Assembly: GCA_002742765.1 (NCBI GenBank)
Contig: DLUF01000049.1
Location: forward strand, 1,516-38,369
Direction of reading: 5' to 3'
Source of the DNA: Sulfurospirillum sp. UBA12182
GTDB taxonomy: Bacteria; Campylobacterota; Campylobacteria; Campylobacterales; Sulfurospirillaceae
DNA: 36,854 nucleotides
The translations under genes were made by a program, and so were the position numbers. Below the pieces are notes generated by a model that ran no database searches, had not been told where the DNA came from, and was given only the letters and a program-made list of their open reading frames with translations. Within the stretch, counting starts at the first letter, position 1; the number at the start of each line of letters is the position of its first letter. This document shows, piece after piece, positions 1 through 35,832 of the stretch.

Positions 1-682
1 GTTTGTAGGGGTATTAAAACTAGCAGCTATATCATCCATGGCATTATGTGATTGTATCACATGCTAGTTTGTAGGGGTATTAAAACAAGAATATCGATAC
101 AAAGGGGGCTAGAGATAATTGTATCACATGCTAGTTTGTAGGGGTATTAAAACTCTAGCCCCAATTAGTTTCACAATTATGAAATTGTATCACATGCTAG
201 TTTGTAGGGGTATTAAAACTTCTTGATTCTAAAATACAGTATTTTTATTATTGTATCACATGCTAGTTTGTAGGGGTATTAAAACGATTAACTAGACTTA
301 AATCTTGAGTGATAAATTGTATCACATGCTAGTTTGTAGGGGTATTAAAACTGGTATTGACACCTTGTATTATTTCTGTTCATTGTATCACATGCTAGTT
401 TGTAGGGGTATTAAAACAGTTTAGTAAGTTCGGATTGAGTTACGTTAATTGTATCACATGCTAGTTTGTAGGGGTATTAAAACGAATTATTTATAGCATA
501 ACGAAGTGTTTTTATTGTATCACATGCTAGTTTGTAGGGGTATTAAAACGGCATATATATTTTATCCTCAATGGGTCTAATTGTATCACATGCTAGTTTG
601 TAGGGGTATTAAAACTAGATTCATGGGCTTTGGTAGCTAACCATCTATTGTATCACATGCTAGTTTGTAGGGGTATTAAAAC
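1..682 (-). CRISPR. Type II CRISPR array (10 complete repeats, one partial)
   Basis: Complete identical 36-nt repeats start at 51, 118, 184, 250, 316, 382, 448, 514, 580 and 647. A partial copy fills 1-20, so the array continues beyond the left edge. Ten spacers are visible, 30 nt long except those at 87-117 and 616-646 (31 nt). Read on the minus strand the repeat begins GTTTTAATACCCC and ends GTGATACAAT. The GTTTTA start is typical of type II crRNA repeats, and the plus-strand anti-repeat at 760-796 requires crRNA on the minus strand. The array therefore runs in the same direction as cas9-cas1-cas2. There is no repeat decay within the window. Confidence 0.98.
647..655 (-). promoter_or_regulatory. 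Extended -10 promoter inside the repeat (same in every repeat)
   Basis: On the minus strand the last nine bases of each repeat read TGATACAAT, a TGn plus TACAAT extended -10 element. It lies directly against the next spacer, so transcription would begin a few bases inside that spacer. Neisseria meningitidis type II-C repeats end in TGCTACAAT and are known to promote each crRNA separately; the match in sequence and position is close. The coordinates given are for the array-proximal repeat; equivalent sites open the repeats at 51, 118, 184, 250, 316, 382, 448, 514 and 580. There is no good -35 box, as expected for extended -10 promoters. Confidence 0.65.
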
Positions 683-760
683 CGATAAAAAAAAGATATT
701 TTGTGCATTTTCTACCCAAAATTTGAAAATTAAATAAAGTTTATGTATAATTTTGAAGCG
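683..760. other. CRISPR leader / spacer between array and tracrRNA
   Basis: A 78-bp AT-rich stretch separates the last perfect repeat from the anti-repeat. It contains the plus-strand tracrRNA promoter. I see no strong minus-strand promoter in it, which fits crRNA transcription starting from the repeats themselves. By position it could also serve as the integration leader, but that is inference. Confidence 0.5.
723..751 (+). promoter_or_regulatory. Sigma70 promoter of tracrRNA
   Basis: TTGAAA at 723-728, a 17-bp spacer and TATAAT at 746-751. This is almost the consensus housekeeping promoter. The expected start is near 757-759, just ahead of the anti-repeat. Confidence 0.85.
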
Positions 761-855
761 TTGTATCACACGCTAGTTTAATAGGGGTATTAAACTAAGG
801 CTATCTTTAAGATAGCCGACCTTAGGCGGTAGCTTCGGCTACTCGCCCTTCTTTT
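758..855 (+). ncRNA. tracrRNA of the type II-C system
   Basis: The anti-repeat at 760-796 pairs with the crRNA repeat over nearly its full length. It has one internal bulge (two A at 780-781 opposite one C) and a C771/A mismatch, the usual form of a crRNA:tracrRNA duplex. Behind it lies a nexus-like hairpin, GGCTATC 799-805 with GATAGCC 811-817. A second hairpin spans 825-847, capped by a cUUCGg tetraloop (834-837), and is followed by CTTCTTTT, an intrinsic terminator. The segment TAAGGC just after the anti-repeat resembles the start of the Neisseria tracrRNA tail. Predicted length is about 98 nt; the start is inferred from the promoter at 723-751. The tail overlaps the cas2 stop codon on the other strand. 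Confidence 0.9.
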
Positions 856-1186
856 AAAATAATAATAACTGTTTTGGTTCGTTTTTTTCCTCCACACTTG
901 GCTCTCCGATAATTATATCCATCGCTGCAAATTGTTTATCTGTAAAGACAAGAATCCTGATGTTTCCATGTTTGATATTTTTTTTGACAAACTCTTTGAT
1001 TCTTTTTTTACCGTAATTTGCAGAATCAAAAGAGCTAAATATCTTTCCATATACAGAGTACTGAAGTCTGTGGTAACCCTCTTTTTCTAATTCTTTGTGA
1101 AACCAGTGATATCTTTTTTTATCTTTTTTACTTTTTGTAGGTAAATCAAACATCAACATTAGCCACATGACTCTAAATGCACTCAT
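854..1186 (-). CDS. cas2: CRISPR-associated endonuclease Cas2
   Basis: Cas2 is the non-catalytic partner of Cas1 in the spacer-integration complex. The ORF is open from 1207 (117 aa), but the family start motif MSAFRVMWLMLMFDLP begins at the Met encoded at 1186, giving 110 aa, the usual Cas2 size. The ferredoxin-like beta1 strand ends in FDLP (Asp14), and LQYSVYGK follows about residue 42. The gene overlaps the end of cas1 by 14 nt, implying translational coupling. Its stop (854-856) lies on the poly-T tail of the convergent tracrRNA. No strong ribosome site is visible, consistent with coupling. Confidence 0.93.
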   Translation of the reverse strand: MSAFRVMWLMLMFDLPTKSKKDKKRYHWFHKELEKEGYHRLQYSVYGKIFSSFDSANYGKKRIKEFVKKNIKHGNIRILVFTDKQFAAMDIIIGEPSVEEKNEPKQLLLF

Positions 1187-2108
1187 ACTCAAAAAAACCA
1201 AAATCAATAGATGGAAAAGCTAAGGCTTCCACCTCTCCACTCATCATCACTTTTTTATACTCTCTTATGAAGCTATCTACTGCTTGAGAAACAGAAGATA
1301 TCCCAGTTTGATATTTTATACATTGCATACTCAAAAGAGAGGCTAAGTCTCTTTTGATTTCTAGTTTTAAAGTATTTTCTCTATTATATCTTGTCTCATA
1401 CAAAAGCTTTACATGTAAGTCACAAACTGGACGAAATACTTCCATCAAGTCATCTACAAGAGCAAAAGCATTGTATCTGTTTTTATGCCATATACCAAAA
1501 ACAGGCAACATCCCACTAGCACTTACACTTCTAGCAGCAGAAGCTCGCAATATCGCATAACTATAATTGAGCATACTATTGAGTATATCTTCACTTTTTT
1601 GGTCTCTTCTAAAACTTTTTTCCTTAAAAAAAGATTTCCAATACAACCTTGCAGCCTGAGCTTCATCTTGATTTTGGTCATACAGTTGGACTTTTTTGGC
1701 AAGTTCTAGCAAATCTTTACATGTAGGATTTACAAAAAACTCTAACACGGATGCTTGATTTTGAATCTTACATGTAACTATCTTTTTCCAGATTATTTCT
1801 CGAAAATCTTGAGGGATGGAAACTTGCAAATCGGCAATTTCTCTCATCGTAGAGTGCTGATGATAAGGACTTAAGATAGCACAAGGATGAAACTCTTCAT
1901 CGATAAACAAAGCTGCGATATTGTTTTTAGCCAATAGCTCCAAACTAGTTCCTGTAATCGAAAAATGGGTGTTATCAAAAAGGATAAAATCTATATCCCC
2001 TAGAGTCACTTTTACTTTTTGGTCATCATCATAAAAATGAATCAATAAATTTTCACTCACAACTTTTATCTTACAGGGTCTTGAGAGATGTACTATCTTC
2101 CATCCCAT
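1173..2108 (-). CDS. cas1: CRISPR-associated endonuclease Cas1 (type II)
   Basis: Cas1 is the integrase that inserts new spacers at the array. The protein has 311 aa, typical for type II Cas1. The metal-binding residues are visible: Glu149 in DEAQAARLYW, His208 in FGIWHKN and the acidic pair in VDDLMEVFRP (Asp220, Glu223). The start lies 3 nt after the cas9 stop, so cas9-cas1-cas2 form one transcription unit. Two exact copies of the TTACATGTAA palindrome and one near copy fall inside the gene, encoding LHVK and twice TCK. No csn2 or cas4 follows, which defines subtype II-C. Confidence 0.97.
   Translation of the reverse strand: MGWKIVHLSRPCKIKVVSENLLIHFYDDDQKVKVTLGDIDFILFDNTHFSITGTSLELLAKNNIAALFIDEEFHPCAILSPYHQHSTMREIADLQVSIPQDFREIIWKKIVTCKIQNQASVLEFFVNPTCKDLLELAKKVQLYDQNQDEAQAARLYWKSFFKEKSFRRDQKSEDILNSMLNYSYAILRASAARSVSASGMLPVFGIWHKNRYNAFALVDDLMEVFRPVCDLHVKLLYETRYNRENTLKLEIKRDLASLLSMQCIKYQTGISSVSQAVDSFIREYKKVMMSGEVEALAFPSIDFGFFEYECI
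1409..1418. repeat. TTACATGTAA palindrome, copy 1
   Basis: Inside cas1; read as Leu-His-Val-Lys. Confidence 0.9.
1768..1777. repeat. TTACATGTAA palindrome, copy 2
   Basis: Inside cas1 in another frame; read as Val-Thr-Cys-Lys. A one-mismatch copy (TTACATGTAG, 1717-1726) nearby is also read Thr-Cys-Lys. Confidence 0.9.
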
Positions 2109-2111
2109 AGG

Positions 2112-5100
2112 TCAACTTTTTATATTTTTGATAAATTCTAAAAGCTCACTTTGAACATCTCCTATGGTTATATAGGATTTGATATTGCCCAAAATGTCAA
2201 GATTTAGTTTTATAATTCCTGTGGCTTTTCCAACAGAATGCTGTTTATGACTATTTGCTTTGCCATTAAAAATAGTCAAAAATATATGGGGTTGATTTGA
2301 AATACTTGCAGGAAATCTCGGATTTGAAAATGCAGCCATTTTTTTATCTTCAAGAAAACTTACTATCTTTCCACCTTTAACCCCTCCATCTGGATAGATA
2401 AAAAATACCAAATCATTTTTATAAACTTTAAAGCTATCATCATTTTCTTTTAATTTATAAATACCATTAACAACTATTGTATTGGATACATCGATTCTTT
2501 CATATTGCAAAGTATCATTTTCTAAAACTGATTTAAAACCTATGAAAGTTTTCTCTTTGGTTGCAAGTCCTCCTCTTATCTCAAATCCTGTCAGATTTGT
2601 TTGATAAAACTTCACTTTTCGTATCTCATTGCCATTGTTATCAATAAGTGGAGAATGAACCAAATCATCTAATTTTATTTTTGCTTCACTCATCGCTTCT
2701 TTATCTTTTGCATCAAGCCAAACAAATTCATTTAAAAGTTTAACGATTTCATCTGCTCTTTTTTGAACTATTTTACATATCACATCATTTGGATTTGTTT
2801 TGTACAAATACATTTTCGTTAAAATCTCTTTTTTAAAACTCTCAACAAACACTTCTGCTTTAGTCACAGGAGTAATCTTCAAAGCGATAAATTTAGCTGT
2901 GATATTTTCCCTAACAGTATAGATATCATTTGGTTTTTTACTATAAATGGTGTCTTTATGAACTTTTGATACCATAGGTTTTTTTGATACCCAAAAATTG
3001 ACTGTTTTTGTATTTCCAAAAATATCTTTGTAGAAGATACTTTCTTCACCAAACTCATTGTATCTCTCTTCTATCATTTCTACCAACTCTTTTGGTTCAA
3101 TTCCCTCTATAAGTGGCATAGCTTTTTTGATATTTGCTCGTGCTTCATCATCAATTTTGCCTAAATTTTCTCTAAAAGTACTGGAGAGTTTTTGAAGCCA
3201 AGATTTATTTGTAAGCCCTATCAGGATGGCATCTATTGCATGATGGATGTTAGTATCTCTTGTTTTTGTTTTTACATGTAAGAGTTTTCTTATATTTGAT
3301 GTGGCTCTTCCTTGTATGTGTCTTATCTCCATAGAATTTTTAGTTTGATTTGGAAATGGATAGTACCTTTTTAGCACTTGAGCACTCAACGCTTCTATGT
3401 AGCTAGTTGCTCTTAGTTCTTTAGACTCAAAAGTGTCTTTGAAAGTTTCTTCAAGAGTAGTAGCAAGGAGATTTATCTTTTTTTTCCAATTTATTTTACG
3501 CTCTTTGAATAAATCTTCAACTCTATTTTTAAAATCTTCTTTATCATTTATAAAATTCATAGGAAGTTGATTTGATTTTTTTAAGTTGCTATCTCTATGA
3601 ACTAAAACTAAATTATGCTTTACACTCAATCCTCCTAAACTTTGAGGGATGATATGGTCAATGTCAACTTTAGAAGTAAATATATCTTTAAACTCTATCC
3701 CCTCTCCTGTATAGATATCTCTTCTGTTTTGTTCCTCATACATCAATATTTTTCGTGCGTATTTTCGGAGATTTTTTCCATAATACTCTGCAATAGCTTG
3801 GTACTCTTTATTTGAAACAATATCGTCTATCTGTTTTTCTAAAGCCTTATTTGCTTTTTCAATCTCTTTTTTTGCCTCTTCACTAAGACTTAGTTCTCTC
3901 GTGCTCTCAACTCGTATCTCATCAAATACACCATGTTTTACATGCAAATGTTTCACGAGTCGCAAAACAGCACTTACGACATATTTGACTGGATGGTTGT
4001 TAATAGAAAGGTTATCATCTTTTTCAAATTGTGAAAGACTGAGATATTTTATCCCTTTTTTAAAATGAGTATAATTCTCCTCTTCGCTGATATTTAACTC
4101 TTTTTTTATATCACTTAAAGTATATCCTTGTTCAAAAAAAGGAATAAACTTAACCATAGCATAGGATGATGTCCTCAAACTTGAACCTGTTTTATGTTTG
4201 ATAAGTTCGATAATAGTTTTATCATCCACTTTATCTTTTAACTTTTCATAGATAGTTTTTGGAGATTTTTCAAACCCTAGTACATCAAAAATCTCTTTTA
4301 AAATCTCATATCTATTTGGTTTTTCTAAAATGGCATTAAAAACATCTCCAAATTTTGAGAGATGACTTAGAAAATGAAATTTGACAATACTCAATGTTCC
4401 ATCCTCTTTATTAAATATCTTAACATTATCATCAAGTTTTAAAATTTTTCTAATATCTTTGTATTTTATATCCGTGATATTTTTGCCCTTTTTGATTTTT
4501 GCAAAAAAATCATCATGTATAAGTTTGATTTGTTCTTTAGTTATCTTTGTTTTTTCTTTGTTAAAAGTGATATTTGACACCGCTTGATACATTTTAAATA
4601 TATCAGCCAAGAGTGAGTATTGGTGTGATACTTTATGTTCTTTGTAAAATTTACACCTTGCAAATAAATCTTCATTATTTGATGATTCTTTTTGGTCATC
4701 TATCGTTTTGATAACTTGTGAAGTAAATTCATTAACTTTAAAATCTTTCTCAAACAATCCAAATTTTACTTGAGAAAATATAATCTTTTTTATCTCATCA
4801 TTAATATCTTCTCTTCTTATCATGTATCTATAATTATCATGATTTCTAAAAGTAGGGGTCTTTTTCTTCATCTCTTCTTCATAGATGATAGTTGCTACTG
4901 TTTTGTTTGGGTATTTGAGTTTTAAATTTTCTATAGTTTTTAATGCTAATTTGATTTTCCCTTTTTCATCATCTTTTTTCGCCTTTTCTTCTTCAAAGGA
5001 TATATCTAACTCTACACACAATTCTTCAAGCAAATCGCTTGTATCTAAAGATTTATATCCTCGATATTTGGCTATGGCATAAAGAATTGAAAACAACTCT

Positions 5101-5447
5101 TCAATGTTCAATTTTTCTTCAAAAGCTTTTTTAGCTCTTAATTCCCATTTGTTTTTATAGAAATTTTGTTTTTCTTGATACAAAAAATAGTTTTTCTCTC
5201 CGAATCCAAACTCTTCAAAAAGTTTTGCGAGATTTTTCTTTCGTTTTTTCCGTAAATTTACAAGTTTTGAAGCACTGCTACTTGCACTATGTAAAAGTTT
5301 TTTTGATTTACCATCTTTATCAGTAGCTTTATCAAACATACTTACACCATAATCAATCAAAGAGTATCTATTATTTTCCAATTCTTCTAAGATACTGTAG
5401 CCTATTGAAGTAATACCCAAATCCAATGAGAGAATCTTTTTAGTCAT
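2112..5447 (-). CDS. cas9: CRISPR-associated endonuclease Cas9 (type II-C)
   Basis: RNA-guided nuclease of 1111 aa, in the compact II-C size class and a little longer than Campylobacter jejuni Cas9. Domains in order: RuvC-I with Asp9 in LSLDLGITSIGYS; an Arg/Lys-rich bridge helix about 59-81; a REC lobe to about 490; RuvC-II with Glu514 in EIRVESTREL; HNH with His598 in DIDHIIPQS and Asn621 in HRDSNLKKSN; RuvC-III with His736 and Asp739 in HHAIDAIL; then the wedge and PAM-interacting region to the end. All catalytic residues of both nuclease sites are present, so the enzyme looks intact. A ribosome site AAGGA precedes the ATG. The PAM cannot be read from sequence. Confidence 0.98.
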   Translation of the reverse strand: MTKKILSLDLGITSIGYSILEELENNRYSLIDYGVSMFDKATDKDGKSKKLLHSASSSASKLVNLRKKRKKNLAKLFEEFGFGEKNYFLYQEKQNFYKNKWELRAKKAFEEKLNIEELFSILYAIAKYRGYKSLDTSDLLEELCVELDISFEEEKAKKDDEKGKIKLALKTIENLKLKYPNKTVATIIYEEEMKKKTPTFRNHDNYRYMIRREDINDEIKKIIFSQVKFGLFEKDFKVNEFTSQVIKTIDDQKESSNNEDLFARCKFYKEHKVSHQYSLLADIFKMYQAVSNITFNKEKTKITKEQIKLIHDDFFAKIKKGKNITDIKYKDIRKILKLDDNVKIFNKEDGTLSIVKFHFLSHLSKFGDVFNAILEKPNRYEILKEIFDVLGFEKSPKTIYEKLKDKVDDKTIIELIKHKTGSSLRTSSYAMVKFIPFFEQGYTLSDIKKELNISEEENYTHFKKGIKYLSLSQFEKDDNLSINNHPVKYVVSAVLRLVKHLHVKHGVFDEIRVESTRELSLSEEAKKEIEKANKALEKQIDDIVSNKEYQAIAEYYGKNLRKYARKILMYEEQNRRDIYTGEGIEFKDIFTSKVDIDHIIPQSLGGLSVKHNLVLVHRDSNLKKSNQLPMNFINDKEDFKNRVEDLFKERKINWKKKINLLATTLEETFKDTFESKELRATSYIEALSAQVLKRYYPFPNQTKNSMEIRHIQGRATSNIRKLLHVKTKTRDTNIHHAIDAILIGLTNKSWLQKLSSTFRENLGKIDDEARANIKKAMPLIEGIEPKELVEMIEERYNEFGEESIFYKDIFGNTKTVNFWVSKKPMVSKVHKDTIYSKKPNDIYTVRENITAKFIALKITPVTKAEVFVESFKKEILTKMYLYKTNPNDVICKIVQKRADEIVKLLNEFVWLDAKDKEAMSEAKIKLDDLVHSPLIDNNGNEIRKVKFYQTNLTGFEIRGGLATKEKTFIGFKSVLENDTLQYERIDVSNTIVVNGIYKLKENDDSFKVYKNDLVFFIYPDGGVKGGKIVSFLEDKKMAAFSNPRFPASISNQPHIFLTIFNGKANSHKQHSVGKATGIIKLNLDILGNIKSYITIGDVQSELLEFIKNIKS
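3272..3281. repeat. TTACATGTAA palindrome, copy 3
   Basis: Inside cas9, read Leu-His-Val-Lys just before RuvC-III. A one-mismatch copy, TTACATGCAA (3938-3947), is also read Leu-His-Val-Lys near RuvC-II. Confidence 0.9.
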
Positions 5448-5576: not shown

Positions 5577-5591
5577 ATGACTGTCAGTCAT
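5577..5591. promoter_or_regulatory. Palindromic operator, probably for the TetR-type repressor
   Basis: ATGACTG-T-CAGTCAT is a perfect 7-bp inverted repeat around one central base. It lies between the predicted transcription start and the ribosome site of the tetR gene. Position and symmetry suit autorepression of the whole operon by the downstream regulator. Confidence 0.7.
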
Positions 5592-5603
5592 AAAAGGAAT
5601 TCT

Positions 5604-6218
5604 ATGGCTAGAATCATAGACAAAGAGGAAAAACGAAACGATATTGCTCGTGCTTCTATCGCTTTGTTTTGTGAAAAAGGCATACAACAAACAAGCATGA
5701 AAGCTATCGCAAAGAGTGCAGGTGTAGCAAAAGGTACGATTTATCTCTATTTTAAAAACAAAGAGGAAATCATCTTTGCTATTTGGGACATGATAACTCA
5801 AATTCACCAAAAATCATACATGAAAAATATTACTAATGAGATGAGTGCTAGAGAAAAAATTTTATTGTATTTTAATTTTGAAGAATGTGAAGCACATGAG
5901 GACAAAGAACAAATTCTCATACTTTTTCAACACTTTCTTAGTGCAATGCTCGTTGATAAAACAGGAATATACACAAAGTATTTTGAAAGTTTTTTTGAAA
6001 AAGATTTTGAGTTTATCTCAACATGCTTACGCGAAGGAGTTCAAAAAGGAGAATTTCAAAGTGAAGATATTGAAATTCTTACAACGAGTATCATTCTTAT
6101 ATTTAAAGGTTTAGCAGTACATGTAAAAGCTTCAAATCTTGGTTTTTTTGAAGCTCAAAAGTTACTGCTTCAGTATATCAACTCCCTTTTAGACCATTAC
6201 ACAAGGTGTTTATCATGA
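5604..6218 (+). CDS. TetR/AcrR-family transcriptional regulator
   Basis: Predicted dimeric repressor of 204 aa. The N-terminal helix-turn-helix occupies about residues 12-56 (TSMKAIAKSAGVAKGTIYLYF is the recognition region). The rest is an all-helical ligand domain with no recognisable ligand. The frame is open from 5577, but AAGGA six bases before the ATG at 5604 and the family-like start MARIIDKEEK fix the start there; the upstream ATG falls inside the operator. The stop overlaps the adaptor start as ATGA. The regulator probably controls the pump it precedes and itself, through the palindrome at 5577-5591. Confidence 0.9.
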   Translation: MARIIDKEEKRNDIARASIALFCEKGIQQTSMKAIAKSAGVAKGTIYLYFKNKEEIIFAIWDMITQIHQKSYMKNITNEMSAREKILLYFNFEECEAHEDKEQILILFQHFLSAMLVDKTGIYTKYFESFFEKDFEFISTCLREGVQKGEFQSEDIEILTTSIILIFKGLAVHVKASNLGFFEAQKLLLQYINSLLDHYTRCLS

Positions 6219-6913
6219 AAAAAGTTTTTTTTACTATTGTATTTTTATATCAAGCCCTCATAGCAGGGGAAGTTTATGCTACCTTTGATGTAGTGAGTGA
6301 AAAAAGTTCAGAACTTGGACTTTCCATCTCAGGCATCGTTGGAAGCTTACATGTAGAAGTTGGAAGTCATGCAAAAAAAGGGGATTTACTCCTAGCTTTA
6401 GATAATGCTCAAGAAAAGAATGAGTATGAAATCGCAAAGAAAAATGCAGAACATGCCCAAAAAGTTTATAACCGCTATGCAAAAATCGCTGATGTCATCA
6501 ACAAAGAACAGATGGACAATTATCGCTACGATATGGAAGTCAAAATGCTCACAGCAAAAAATAAAGAGATTGTTTTCAAAAAAACAGAGCTTAGAGCTCC
6601 TTATGATTTGATAGTTTCTAAAAAGATGACTGAACTAGGAAATATCGTCTTAGGTTCACAAACGAAACTTTTGACAGTTGAAAGTGTAGAGGATATAAAG
6701 CTCATACTCAAGTTTGATGAAAAGTACTGGCAACAAGTCAAAGTAGGACAAAAATTTATCTACAAAGTTGATGGAAGTGATAAAAACTATGAAGGCACTA
6801 TCACCAAAATCTACCCAACTGTACTCTCAAGTACACGTCAAATGCAAGCTGAAGTCAAAGCAAAAGACCTTCTTCCAGGACTTTTTGGCAATGGCAATAT
6901 CATAGTGGAATAA
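6215..6913 (+). CDS. RND efflux periplasmic adaptor (membrane fusion protein), short form
   Basis: The protein has 232 aa and a signal peptide (about residues 1-22, MKKVFFTIVFLYQALIAGEVYA split here only for reading). A lipoyl-like half (GIVGSLHVEVGSHAKKGDLL) is followed by a short coiled-coil hairpin rich in Lys and Ala (about 70-120), the second lipoyl half (LRAPYDLIVSKKM) and a beta-barrel region. It is much shorter than typical AcrA-type adaptors (roughly 370-400 aa), mainly because of a short hairpin and an absent C-terminal membrane-proximal domain. The ATG at 6215 overlaps the tetR stop by four bases; an upstream GTG at 6206 is less likely. It connects the RND pump that follows to an outer-membrane channel not encoded here. 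Confidence 0.87.
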   Translation: MKKVFFTIVFLYQALIAGEVYATFDVVSEKSSELGLSISGIVGSLHVEVGSHAKKGDLLLALDNAQEKNEYEIAKKNAEHAQKVYNRYAKIADVINKEQMDNYRYDMEVKMLTAKNKEIVFKKTELRAPYDLIVSKKMTELGNIVLGSQTKLLTVESVEDIKLILKFDEKYWQQVKVGQKFIYKVDGSDKNYEGTITKIYPTVLSSTRQMQAEVKAKDLLPGLFGNGNIIVE

Positions 6914-6917
6914 TCCC

Positions 6918-9900
6918 ATGTATAAATTAGCGATTAACAGACCTATCACTACTTTGATGGGTGTTTTGACTTTTATAGTTTTTGGGTTGATGTCTTACAA
7001 CACTATGCCTATAAATCTTTTCCCAAATGTTGATTTTCCAGTTGTAACAGTTCAAACAAATTACAATGGAGCAGACCCTTCAACAGTAGAAACAAAAGTA
7101 ACTGACAAAATCGAAGAAGCTGTCTCAGGGGTTGATGGCATCGATAAGCTGATGTCGACAAGTTATGAAGGTTTTAGTGTTGTTACCATACAGTTTGAGC
7201 TAGCAAAAGACCTGGATGAAGCAACAAACGATGTAAGAGATAAGATTGGGGCGATTGACCTACCTAGTGAGGTTGATAAGCCCATAGTAAAAAAACTAGG
7301 TGCTTCAGGTGCTGTTATCAGTCTTTTTATCGCCGATAAGGGTGATAATAGCAAAGCTTTAATGCGCCTTGCAGATGAGAAATTAAAAGCGCAACTTCAA
7401 CGCATCAAAGGTGTTGGTGAAGTCAATATCGTTGGGTATCAAGACCGTGAAATTCGTATATTTCTTGATCCATTTTTACTCGCGAAATACTCTTTGAGTG
7501 CTTCTGAAGTTAGCTCTATCATCGCTAGAGAAAACATCAAACAAGGTGCAGGGAAGATGATCAATCAAACCCAAGAGATTATCATCAAAGCAGAAGGTGA
7601 TGCGAAAAGCGTTGAAGCTATCGGTGAACTTTTGGTAAAACCTGGTGTAAAACTCAAAGATGTAGCACTTATAGTTGATGGGCTAAGTGATGCGAAAAGT
7701 TACTCTTCGTACAACGGACAACGTGGTGTTACTCTTGAAGTAAAAAAGATTGCAGGTGAAAACTCGCTAGACATCATCAATGGAGTCAAACAAGCTCTCC
7801 CAAAACTACAACATTTAGCAGGCGAAGAGTTTGAAATCAAAGTTCTTCAAGACCAATCAGAAAAAATCATGGTCAACATAAACAATGTCCGTTTTGATTT
7901 GATTTTTGGAGCATTTTTATCTATCGTTATCGTATTTGCTTTTTTGAGAAACTTCACTGCGACTGTGGTCTCAGCACTTGCGATTCCAACGTCTGTTATA
8001 GGAACTTTTGCGATTATTGATGCTTTAGGCTATGACTTAAATCGTCTAACGCTCATAGGACTTACACTTGCCATTGGGATATTTATCGATGATGCTATCG
8101 TTGTAATTGAAAATATCATGAAAAAAATGGAAGAGGGACAAGCTCCTTTCCAAGCCTCTTTTGAGGGGATCAAAGAGGTTGCTTTTTCTATCTTAGCTAT
8201 CTCATCGGTTCTTTTGGCTGTTTTTATCCCAGTCGCATTTATGGATGGTATCGTAGGGATGTTTTTTAACTCTTTTGCTATGACCGTAGCAGCTGGTATC
8301 GTTATCTCTTATCTTGTAGCTGTTATGTTTATCCCTAGTGTTGGTGCTAGAGTTTTAAGTGCAAAAGAGAGTAGATTTTACTATGCAACAGAACCTATTT
8401 TCAAAGCTATTGACAAAGTTTATGTACGTACATTAAAAATAATTTTACGTTTTAAAGTCATTACGATAATCGCTACTGTTGGTCTCTTAGTTGCTTCAAC
8501 CTCTTTGAATGTCGGAATGAACTTTTTGCCTATGCAAGACAATAGCGAATTTCAAATCACTATCAAAGCGCCTGTGGGCATCAACTTAGAAACCATGAAA
8601 GCAAAGATGGAACCACTCAATGCCCTCATACAAGAGGATAAAGATATCCTATACTCAATCTCATCTATCGGCTATAACTCTGCCAAAGAGATTCACAAGG
8701 GCAAAATCTATGCCAAACTCAAACCAGTAGAGCAGAGAGTTGGACGTACACAAGAGCAGATTATCCAGTTTTATAGAGACAAACTCAAATCTTTTCAAGA
8801 TATGACTATACTAGTTGAAGAAGTTGATGTTTTTGATACTGAAAGCACAACTGCCCCCGTGCAAGTAGTTATCACAGGCGAGAGTCTGGATGAGCTTGAT
8901 AAAGCTTCTTTAAAACTCATGGAAGTTTTAAGTAAAACAGCAGGTATCGTTGATGTTGATAGAGATTATGAAAGTGGTAAACCTGAGATTAAAGTTTCTA
9001 TCTTGAGAGAAAACGCCCAACGAGTAGGAGTAAGTGTCCAAGAGATTACCTCTGTTTTAGCTTCTGCTTACTCTAGTGATAATGCCACTTCTTACTTTGA
9101 AGACAATGGACGTCAGTTTGATATCACAGTACGTTATCAAGATGATTACCGAAAATCATTAGAAGATTTGAAGAAACTAAAAGTAAGAAATAGTGATGGA
9201 GACTTTGTAAGTTTAGAGGGCTTGTTGCAACTAGATGAGAGTACTGGAACTGCTTCAATCAACCGTTTTGATAGAGAACGTAAAGTTCTTGTTACTGCAA
9301 ACACTTATAACACCTCTTTAGACAAAATCGTCGCTGTTGTCAATGAAGCTATGCCAAAAATCTTACCACAAGGGTATGCTTATCGTTACACTGGTGACGT
9401 TGAAAACCTTGAAGACACCAACAAAGCTTTTGGAGCAGCCGTGCTTTTAGCAGTAATCTTGATTTATCTGATTTTGGCAGCACTTTATGAATCAATCATC
9501 CAGCCATTTATCATCATGATTTCTATGCCTCTCTCTTTTACAGGTATTATTATCGCTCTTTATTTGAGTGGAAATTCCTTTAGCTTGTTTGTTATGATTG
9601 GTATCATTTTACTTTTAGGAATGGTTGGGAAAAATGCCATTTTGGTTGTTGATTTTGCTAACCGTGCGATTAAAGAAGGAAAAAGTATCGATGAAGCTCT
9701 TTTTGAGGCAGGAGAAAAACGTCTACGTCCTATCTTGATGACTACTTTTGCTATGATTGGTGCGATGATACCTCTAGCATTTGGTGGTGGGGCTGGACAC
9801 GAAGCAAATGCCCCTATGGCATTAGCGATTATCGGAGGATTGCTTAGTTCAACTATCTTGACACTTCTTGTTGTTCCAGCCATTTACAAATTTATGTATC

Positions 9901-9950
9901 CGATGGATGCATGGCTTAGAAAATGGTATGAAAAAGGTTTGGTCGATTAA
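6918..9950 (+). CDS. RND-family multidrug efflux pump (HAE1/AcrB-like)
   Basis: Inner-membrane proton-driven exporter of 1010 aa. It starts with the family motif NRPITTLMGVLTF in TM1 and carries the paired Asp391-Asp392 in GIFIDDAIVVIENI (TM4), the proton relay. The second half holds GKNAILVVDFAN (TM10), with the conserved Lys. Two large periplasmic loops (about 30-330 and 550-840) form the porter and docking domains. The gene follows the adaptor by four bases, so both are in the tetR-led operon. Substrate cannot be deduced; the full-length ORF with relay residues intact suggests a working pump. No outer-membrane factor gene follows. Confidence 0.94.
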   Translation: MYKLAINRPITTLMGVLTFIVFGLMSYNTMPINLFPNVDFPVVTVQTNYNGADPSTVETKVTDKIEEAVSGVDGIDKLMSTSYEGFSVVTIQFELAKDLDEATNDVRDKIGAIDLPSEVDKPIVKKLGASGAVISLFIADKGDNSKALMRLADEKLKAQLQRIKGVGEVNIVGYQDREIRIFLDPFLLAKYSLSASEVSSIIARENIKQGAGKMINQTQEIIIKAEGDAKSVEAIGELLVKPGVKLKDVALIVDGLSDAKSYSSYNGQRGVTLEVKKIAGENSLDIINGVKQALPKLQHLAGEEFEIKVLQDQSEKIMVNINNVRFDLIFGAFLSIVIVFAFLRNFTATVVSALAIPTSVIGTFAIIDALGYDLNRLTLIGLTLAIGIFIDDAIVVIENIMKKMEEGQAPFQASFEGIKEVAFSILAISSVLLAVFIPVAFMDGIVGMFFNSFAMTVAAGIVISYLVAVMFIPSVGARVLSAKESRFYYATEPIFKAIDKVYVRTLKIILRFKVITIIATVGLLVASTSLNVGMNFLPMQDNSEFQITIKAPVGINLETMKAKMEPLNALIQEDKDILYSISSIGYNSAKEIHKGKIYAKLKPVEQRVGRTQEQIIQFYRDKLKSFQDMTILVEEVDVFDTESTTAPVQVVITGESLDELDKASLKLMEVLSKTAGIVDVDRDYESGKPEIKVSILRENAQRVGVSVQEITSVLASAYSSDNATSYFEDNGRQFDITVRYQDDYRKSLEDLKKLKVRNSDGDFVSLEGLLQLDESTGTASINRFDRERKVLVTANTYNTSLDKIVAVVNEAMPKILPQGYAYRYTGDVENLEDTNKAFGAAVLLAVILIYLILAALYESIIQPFIIMISMPLSFTGIIIALYLSGNSFSLFVMIGIILLLGMVGKNAILVVDFANRAIKEGKSIDEALFEAGEKRLRPILMTTFAMIGAMIPLAFGGGAGHEANAPMALAIIGGLLSSTILTLLVVPAIYKFMYPMDAWLRKWYEKGLVD

Positions 9951-34758: not shown

Positions 34759-35832
34759 ATGCAAATTTTAGATTTTTTATATGAAGAAGAGAATAAAAAT
34801 TCAAAATTTTTTGATAGAAAAATTTCAATTACTTCAAAAAAAACTCTTATAAAAGGAGTAAAAAAATCTGGAAAAACCTATATCATATATGATTATCTTT
34901 CCAACTTCCATCCTGATGAGTATCTTTATATTGATCTTTTAGATGAGAGAATTAAAGATTTACACGTTGAAAAAAATTTAGAAAAATTTTTAGAAAATAA
35001 AAAAATAAAAATCTTGGTTATCGAAAATTACGATTTTACTTTCCCTTTACCATCTCTTGAAGAAATAATCATCACTTCACACCGCAAAGATGTAAAACTA
35101 GAAGGTTTTGATGAGCTTATGCTCTATCCTTTAGACTTTGAGGAATTTATAGCTTTTGATAGAAAACACTTCAACATAGAGCAAATTTTCAATATCTTTG
35201 CAAATCTTGGTACTTTTCCCCAAATAGTTCTTGAACATGAGCATAATGTAAGAAGTAATTTACAAGATTTGATTAGAATTATCATTCAAGATGAAACCAA
35301 ATTGAATATCTTTAAAAAAATTTGTGAACTCCAAAGTACAAAGATTTCACTCTTTCAAATCTATAATCAACTAAAAAGTATTTCCAAAATTTCAAAAGAT
35401 AAACTTTATCGGAGTATCAAAGAGTTAGAAAATGAAAACATTCTCTTTTTTGTAGAAAAATTTGATGCTACAAATGCAAACAAAAAAGTCTATCTTTGTG
35501 ATTTTGCTATCAAAAATGCTTTAAGTCTCAAAAAAGACTTTCTCAAAAGATTTGAAAATATAGTCTTTTCAGAGTTATATAAAAGATACAAGGAAATTTT
35601 TTATACTGATGTGATTGATTTTTATCTACCAAAGCAAAACATTGGCATCATTTGTGCGCCTTTTTCTCCCAAAGAATTTATCGAAGAAAAATTAAAAAAG
35701 TACTCTACACATCTTTTGGATTTAAGCCTTCAAGAGATTTATATCATTTCAGTAGGAAACGAAGATGCATTTAATATAGAAGGTATCACATGCAATATCG
35801 TTCCTTTTTGGGAGTGGGCTTTACAAGGTTGA
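34759..35832 (+). CDS. AAA-type ATPase of the AAA_14 / DUF4143-like group
   Basis: 357 aa. Walker A is GVKKSGKT (33-40), the Walker B strand is KILVIENYD (84-92), and IITSHRK resembles sensor 1. LMLYPLDFEEFIAFDRK is the helix typical of AAA_14 ATPases. A winged-helix-like part follows (about 205-250), then a C-terminal domain with FENIVFSELYKRYKEIFYTD and VIDFYLP, resembling the nuclease-like DUF4143 fold; the usual Glu-x-Lys is replaced by ICAPF, so nuclease activity is unlikely. AAGGAG lies five bases before the ATG. Function is unknown. It is divergent from rpsJ and overlaps the next gene tail-to-tail by 12 bp. Confidence 0.75.
   Translation: MQILDFLYEEENKNSKFFDRKISITSKKTLIKGVKKSGKTYIIYDYLSNFHPDEYLYIDLLDERIKDLHVEKNLEKFLENKKIKILVIENYDFTFPLPSLEEIIITSHRKDVKLEGFDELMLYPLDFEEFIAFDRKHFNIEQIFNIFANLGTFPQIVLEHEHNVRSNLQDLIRIIIQDETKLNIFKKICELQSTKISLFQIYNQLKSISKISKDKLYRSIKELENENILFFVEKFDATNANKKVYLCDFAIKNALSLKKDFLKRFENIVFSELYKRYKEIFYTDVIDFYLPKQNIGIICAPFSPKEFIEEKLKKYSTHLLDLSLQEIYIISVGNEDAFNIEGITCNIVPFWEWALQG

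What the first reader, a model, noticed from the sequence alone, without database searches (positions are those of the whole stretch)
1..5447. Complete, apparently functional type II-C CRISPR-Cas locus
cas9, cas1, cas2, array and tracrRNA are all present, catalytic residues are intact and repeats are identical. The Cas9 (1111 aa) is a II-C orthologue whose PAM and guide architecture cannot be inferred here and may be uncharacterised.
Basis: partly seen in the sequence, partly recalled or inferred. Interest (0 to 1): 0.7.

Follow-up and report, generated by a model that had tools for sequence, protein, structure and literature searches.

The report
Intact type II-C CRISPR-Cas9 locus
This is an ordinary but well-preserved CRISPR-Cas9 immune locus of a Campylobacterota bacterium, with its guide RNAs readable from the sequence and one spacer traceable to a phage tail gene; its Cas9 belongs to a branch in which only a distant relative (about 37% identical) was found to have been studied at the bench.

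Summary
cas9 (2112-5447), cas1 (1173-2108), cas2 (854-1186) and a CRISPR array (1-682) lie on the minus strand; the tracrRNA (about 758-855) is on the plus strand between cas2 and the array. No csn2 or cas4: type II-C. All catalytic residues are present and the genes evolve under purifying selection. The window cuts the array: the contig holds at least 26 complete spacers, not 10. Each repeat ends in an extended -10 promoter box. One spacer derives from a phage tail gene: 27/31 identity with a perfect 19-nt 3' part, and the spacer's peptide recurs in a prophage homologue; the 3' flank reads CAAAA. One protospacer does not define a PAM. The Cas9 sits in a Campylobacterota-only clade, 84% to a Sulfurospirillum MAG, about 37% to Nitratifractor salsuginis Cas9 (active in vitro). 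New member of a known kind. By-product: a Fic gene is wedged between cas9 and cas1 in a sister branch, not in this window.

The parts
1..682 (-). CRISPR array (part in the window): 10 complete repeats GTTTTAATACCCCTACAAACTAGCATGTGATACAAT (crRNA strand) plus a partial one at 1-20, 10 complete spacers of 30-31 nt; continues left beyond the window
   Evidence: contig continuation L021
683..722 (-). leader stretch between array and tracrRNA promoter; its last bases TTATCG abut the first repeat
   Evidence: TTATCG|GTTTTAA kept in 5 of 6 clade A loci with a readable junction (L054 reads TTTATC)
723..751 (+). tracrRNA promoter: TTGAAA, 17 nt, TATAAT
   Evidence: 11 of 12 matches; in 400 bases shuffles give 1.6 such sites on average, so position, not score, is the argument
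758..855 (+). tracrRNA: anti-repeat 760-796, nexus hairpin 799-817, terminator hairpin 825-847 with T tail to 855
   Evidence: duplex energies and own-versus-swapped test; covariation in 8 loci, 11 of 17 pairs with compensatory change
854..1186 (-). cas2 (110 aa from ATG; TTG start at 1207 also open)
   Evidence: TIGR01573 69 bits, cut-off 24.5; PF09827
1173..2108 (-). cas1 (311 aa), type II family; E149, H208, E223
   Evidence: TIGR03639 250 bits, cut-off 120; the only Cas1 in the genome
2112..5447 (-). cas9 (1111 aa); RuvC D9, E514, H736, D739; HNH H598, N621
   Evidence: TIGR01865 422 bits, cut-off 100; HNH_4 and RuvC_III; alignments A1, A4; model closest to Nme1Cas9

Best explanation
It is a type II-C CRISPR-Cas system that most likely works as a heritable immune memory against phages. 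Inferred from anatomy: Cas1-Cas2 insert new spacers at the tracrRNA-proximal end of the array, next to the leader bases TTATCG. Each repeat carries an extended -10 promoter box at its 3' end (TGTGATACAAT), so short crRNAs can start inside each spacer and run into the next repeat, as in Neisseria. The tracrRNA, made from its own promoter on the opposite strand, pairs with the repeat; RNase III, present in the genome, can trim the duplex; Cas9 loads the dual RNA, binds targets with a suitable 3' PAM and cuts both strands with HNH and RuvC. Shown here: the parts, their coevolution, purifying selection, and a phage origin for one spacer. Not shown: transcription, processing, PAM, cutting, acquisition.
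For: Family matches above curated cut-offs. All catalytic residues kept. dN/dS 0.135/0.070/0.044 for cas9/cas1/cas2 against G002. The own anti-repeat is the best or joint best partner for 9 of 11 repeats in a swap test, and the tracrRNA hairpins covary. TGnTAnAAT kept at the 3' end of 7 of 8 repeat types checked while neighbouring bases change. RNase III gene present. 26 different spacers, none matching the genome elsewhere. Spacer 12 matches two IMG/VR contigs 27/31 with 19/19 at the 3' end, in a tail gene next to baseplate genes, differing by one synonymous codon and one residue; the spacer's own residue, A, occurs in the homologue DDWAKYVIYV of a prophage (score 54 against 43 for the best of 156 shuffled spacers).
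Against: No expression data. Only 1 of 26 spacers gave a target; phage and plasmid records and 399 genomes of the order gave only chance-level matches. The direct hit is imperfect (27/31). The array has assembly gaps. The repeat-borne promoter and the leader end are read from sequence only.
Confidence: 0.92

Rival explanations
1. The locus is a relic: intact by sequence, but no longer expressed or acquiring spacers, kept for a short time since inactivation.
For: No transcript data; few spacer targets found; a relative has lost its cas9 to fragments (G006), so decay does happen in this family.
Against: No stop or frameshift in any of three genes; strong purifying selection, strongest on cas1 and cas2; repeats identical over the whole array; tracrRNA, its promoter and terminator intact.
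Confidence: 0.1
2. Cas9 serves mainly gene regulation or another housekeeping role in place of phage defence.
For: Such roles have been described for some Cas9 proteins (own knowledge); nothing here excludes a side role.
Against: cas1 and cas2 are the most constrained genes, which points to ongoing acquisition; no spacer matches the genome itself; one spacer derives from a phage tail gene.
Confidence: 0.04

Closest known systems
Nitratifractor salsuginis Cas9 (Nsa) and its locus (G067: chromosome of 2,101,285 bp, the length published for the type strain in PMC3156401)
   Same: Same Campylobacterota-only Cas9 clade, same gene order, tracrRNA between cas2 and array on the opposite strand, array running the same way as the cas genes, similar repeat. 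Nsa Cas9 cuts DNA in vitro, needs a spacer above 20 nt and is thermostable (PMC7606464).
   Different: Only about 36-37% identical over Cas9; different repeat and tracrRNA; its PAM need not carry over.
Neisseria meningitidis type II-C (Nme1Cas9)
   Same: Best solved fold match; repeat ends in a TGnTACAAT-type promoter (own knowledge; repeat-borne promoters of type II-C are described in PMC10309648, which cites Zhang et al. 2013).
   Different: About 18% identity in the fold alignment; array transcribed with the cas genes, whereas II-C arrays of N. meningitidis and C. jejuni run opposite to them (PMC3936727).
Campylobacter jejuni type II-C
   Same: Phylum, cas9-cas1-cas2 order, repeat and tracrRNA change together (PMC4607530).
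   Different: Short Cas9 (about 980 aa); Cas9s of about that length in Sulfurimonas (L076) are 25-27% identical to the window's, and their repeat lies in the opposite orientation to the cas genes.
Sulfurospirillum sp. MAG Kmv13 locus (JACUTU010000002.1 = G002)
   Same: Cas9 84%, Cas1 92%, Cas2 95% identical, same layout, near-identical tracrRNA.
   Different: Different spacers and different genomic surroundings: its nearest RND pump relative is on another contig.

Membership tests
Type II CRISPR-Cas | cas9 with RuvC and HNH nuclease sites | tested here: met
   TIGR01865 above cut-off; HNH_4, RuvC_III; residues
Type II CRISPR-Cas | type II cas1 and cas2 beside cas9 | tested here: met
   TIGR03639 and TIGR01573 above cut-off; Cas1_II, Cas2_II
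Type II CRISPR-Cas | tracrRNA with an anti-repeat complementary to the repeat | tested here: met
Subtype II-C | no csn2 (II-A) and no cas4 (II-B); only cas9, cas1, cas2 | tested here: met
   Cas genes abut each other; no ORF of this kind between cas2 and array; cas9 flanked by a TetR gene
Subtype II-C | promoter inside each repeat giving crRNAs without 5' processing | tested here: inconclusive
   TGnTAnAAT at the repeat end, kept across the clade; no RNA data
Subtype II-C | array transcribed opposite to the cas genes (as in N. meningitidis and C. jejuni; a common trait, not a defining one) | tested here: not met
   crRNA strand is the cas strand; layouts vary among type II systems (PMC7606464)
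Functional immunity | spacers match mobile elements with a common PAM | tested here: inconclusive
   one protospacer in a phage tail gene, flank CAAAA; too few for a PAM
Functional immunity | RNA-guided cleavage | not testable with these tools
   needs protein and RNA

The most novel reading that the evidence does not exclude
This Cas9 and its close clade (57-84% identical, Campylobacterota only) read a PAM not yet described, possibly an A-rich 3' motif within CNAAR, and one branch of the clade has taken a Fic (AMP-transferase type) gene into the operon between cas9 and cas1 as an accessory.
Probability: 0.25. Interest if true: 0.5.

Novelty: new member of a known kind. Interest (0 to 1): 0.27.

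Why it matters
It adds a well-preserved type II-C locus in a branch of Cas9 where only an enzyme about 37% identical has been measured, and it supplies the exact crRNA repeat, tracrRNA and one target flank, so a PAM assay could be set up directly. For biology at large it is ordinary.

Tried and rejected
Spacer searches in 50,697 phage records and 72,556 plasmids gave only matches that straddle spacer joints or have E above 0.05. The same in 399 genomes of the order: convincing matches only in the own array. Spacers of four related loci: own arrays, and one 26/30 match in G265 whose nature was not followed. Exact scans of IMG/VR with six spacer patterns: one hit pair, five empty. Cas9 relatives in viral contigs: none; in plasmids only distant ones. 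A nine-pair hairpin inside the anti-repeat looked like a switch, but it follows largely from the half-palindromic repeat and is not kept in the sister clade, so it was dropped. The degenerate last repeat of two relatives was considered as proof of array polarity and rejected: only its promoter half is degenerate, which relaxed selection alone explains. Rfam: no match.

Full report
The finding is real. The minus strand of the window carries cas9 (2112-5447), cas1 (1173-2108) and cas2 (854-1186, reading from the ATG), separated by 3 bases or overlapping by 14, followed by a CRISPR array at 682-1. The three proteins match NCBI's models for Cas9 (422 bits, cut-off 100), type II Cas1 (250, cut-off 120) and Cas2 (69, cut-off 24.5). 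Cas9 keeps D9, E514, H736 and D739 of RuvC and H598 and N621 of HNH; Cas1 keeps E149, H208 and E223. There is no csn2 or cas4, so the subtype is II-C.

The window shows only part of the array. It lies at bases 1516-38369 of contig C55 of the genome. The 1515 bases to its left are more array, interrupted by two runs of N, and the contig starts inside a repeat. In all, 26 complete spacers can be read, all different, 30-31 nt long, between identical 36-nt repeats. The genome has no other cas1 and no copy of the repeat on another contig.

Strands. The plus strand at 760-796 resembles the repeat but differs from it, and is followed by two hairpins and a T run ending at 855. This is the tracrRNA, with a promoter TTGAAA-17-TATAAT at 723-751. 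The crRNA is therefore on the minus strand, the same as the cas genes. The order cas9-cas1-cas2, tracrRNA backwards, array forwards is the same in the related loci examined in both halves of the clade, Nitratifractor salsuginis included. It differs from N. meningitidis and C. jejuni, whose arrays run opposite to the cas genes (PMC3936727).

Is the tracrRNA more than a chance likeness? Eleven loci with both repeat and anti-repeat were paired in all combinations: the own anti-repeat was the best or joint best partner for 9 of 11 repeats. The tail of the tracrRNA in eight loci folds into a nexus stem and a terminator stem; 11 of 17 pairs have at least one sequence with both sides changed and the pair kept. 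The repeat ends in TGTGATACAAT, an extended -10 box; TGnTAnAAT is kept in 7 of 8 repeat types although bases around it change. In N. meningitidis such boxes start crRNAs inside each spacer (own knowledge; repeat-borne promoters in II-C are described in PMC10309648). Whether they do so here is inference. A gene for RNase III is present.

Selection. Against the nearest relative, dN/dS is 0.135 for cas9, 0.070 for cas1 and 0.044 for cas2. The acquisition genes are the most constrained.

Targets. No spacer matches the genome outside the array. Phage and plasmid records gave nothing beyond chance. An exact scan of IMG/VR with the 3' 19 nt of spacer 12 (GAAGACTGGGCTAAGTATGTTATCTATGTAC) hit two contigs, IMGVR_UViG_3300019766_000068 and 3300019758_000180. 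The full spacer matches 27 of 31; all four mismatches lie in the 5' twelve bases. A 19-mer could match by chance in a collection of that size, so more was needed. The match is in frame in a tail protein gene beside baseplate and major head genes. The differences are one synonymous codon and one residue: the spacer reads EDWAKYVIYV, the contig EDWYKYVIYV. A homologue in a prophage-like stretch of another genome of the order reads DDWAKYVIYV, with the very alanine of the spacer. Its peptide score is 54; the best of 156 shuffled spacers reached 43. The spacer therefore most likely comes from a tail gene of this family. Both homologues continue with CAAAA after the protospacer. This flank is also fixed by the conserved Pro-Lys of the protein, and one target is not a PAM; CNAAR is the most that can be said.

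Kinship. In a tree of 45 Cas9 proteins the window falls with the MAG Kmv13, called Sulfurospirillum, from a terrestrial mud volcano (PMC7565565), inside a clade of Sulfurimonas, Arcobacter-type and related genomes at 57-84% identity. The sister clade, 35-39% identical, holds a genome whose chromosome has exactly the published length of Nitratifractor salsuginis (2,101,285 bp; PMC3156401). Its Cas9 was expressed and shown to cut in a survey of 79 selected orthologues (PMC7606464). The two clades together are Campylobacterota only in the sample taken. A predicted structure (pLDDT 80, pTM 0.48, so domain placement is unsure) is closest to Nme1Cas9 among solved structures.

By-product. In L054, L059 and L062, three Sulfurimonas loci of the same clade, a 260-aa Fic protein (PF02661, HPFFDGNGRLAR, inhibitory motif SNA[IL]EGN) is encoded between cas9 and cas1, its start touching or overlapping the cas9 stop. 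It is under purifying selection (pN 0.15-0.27, pS 0.64-0.73). The fourth member of that branch, the Sulfurimonas symbiont of Alviniconcha, has a decayed remnant there. The window, Kmv13 and L058 have none. Relatives at 47-59% with no cas gene in the 1-2 kb fetched beside them occur elsewhere in the order. The 2025 classification of CRISPR-Cas systems does not mention Fic in its main text (PMC12669027), and one full-text search gave no paper on it. This is a lead, not a result about the window.

Verdict. A complete and probably working type II-C system; new member of a known kind. What would raise it is a PAM assay.

Noticed in passing
L054:11365-12147, L059:11377-12159, L062:11506-12291; remnant in L023:6575-6983 (same as L055): A 260-aa Fic-domain gene sits between cas9 and cas1, start touching or overlapping the cas9 stop, in three Sulfurimonas loci of one Cas9 branch and decayed in a fourth; canonical Fic and inhibitory motifs, purifying selection. 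Possible new accessory gene of type II-C; absent from the window.
   Followed up: partly
L059:12163-13071: cas1 of this Sulfurimonas locus has an in-frame stop although cas9, Fic and cas2 are open (decay or assembly error).
   Followed up: no
G006:C4:119030-119457 (L009, L019, L028): Only two short cas9 fragments (69% and 63% identical) remain in this genome of the same family: a dying copy of the same clade.
   Followed up: no
window 34759-35832 (+): An AAA_14 ATPase matches PADLOC's candidate defence family PDC-S01 (E 6.6e-23).
   Followed up: no
window 5577-9950 (+): A TetR regulator with an HlyD-type and an AcrB-type efflux gene lies back to back with cas9; in the relative G002 the nearest such pump is on another contig, so the CRISPR locus sits in different surroundings in the two species.
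   Followed up: partly
L013:954-1386 and L076, L078: The same phylum also carries shorter Cas9s (about 980-1000 aa) with unrelated repeats; several distinct II-C-like lineages coexist in Sulfurimonas-like bacteria.
   Followed up: no
window 775-796: The anti-repeat itself holds a perfect inverted repeat AGTTTAATA-GGGG-TATTAAACT, kept across the near clade; it could compete with crRNA pairing, but most of it follows from the repeat.
   Followed up: partly
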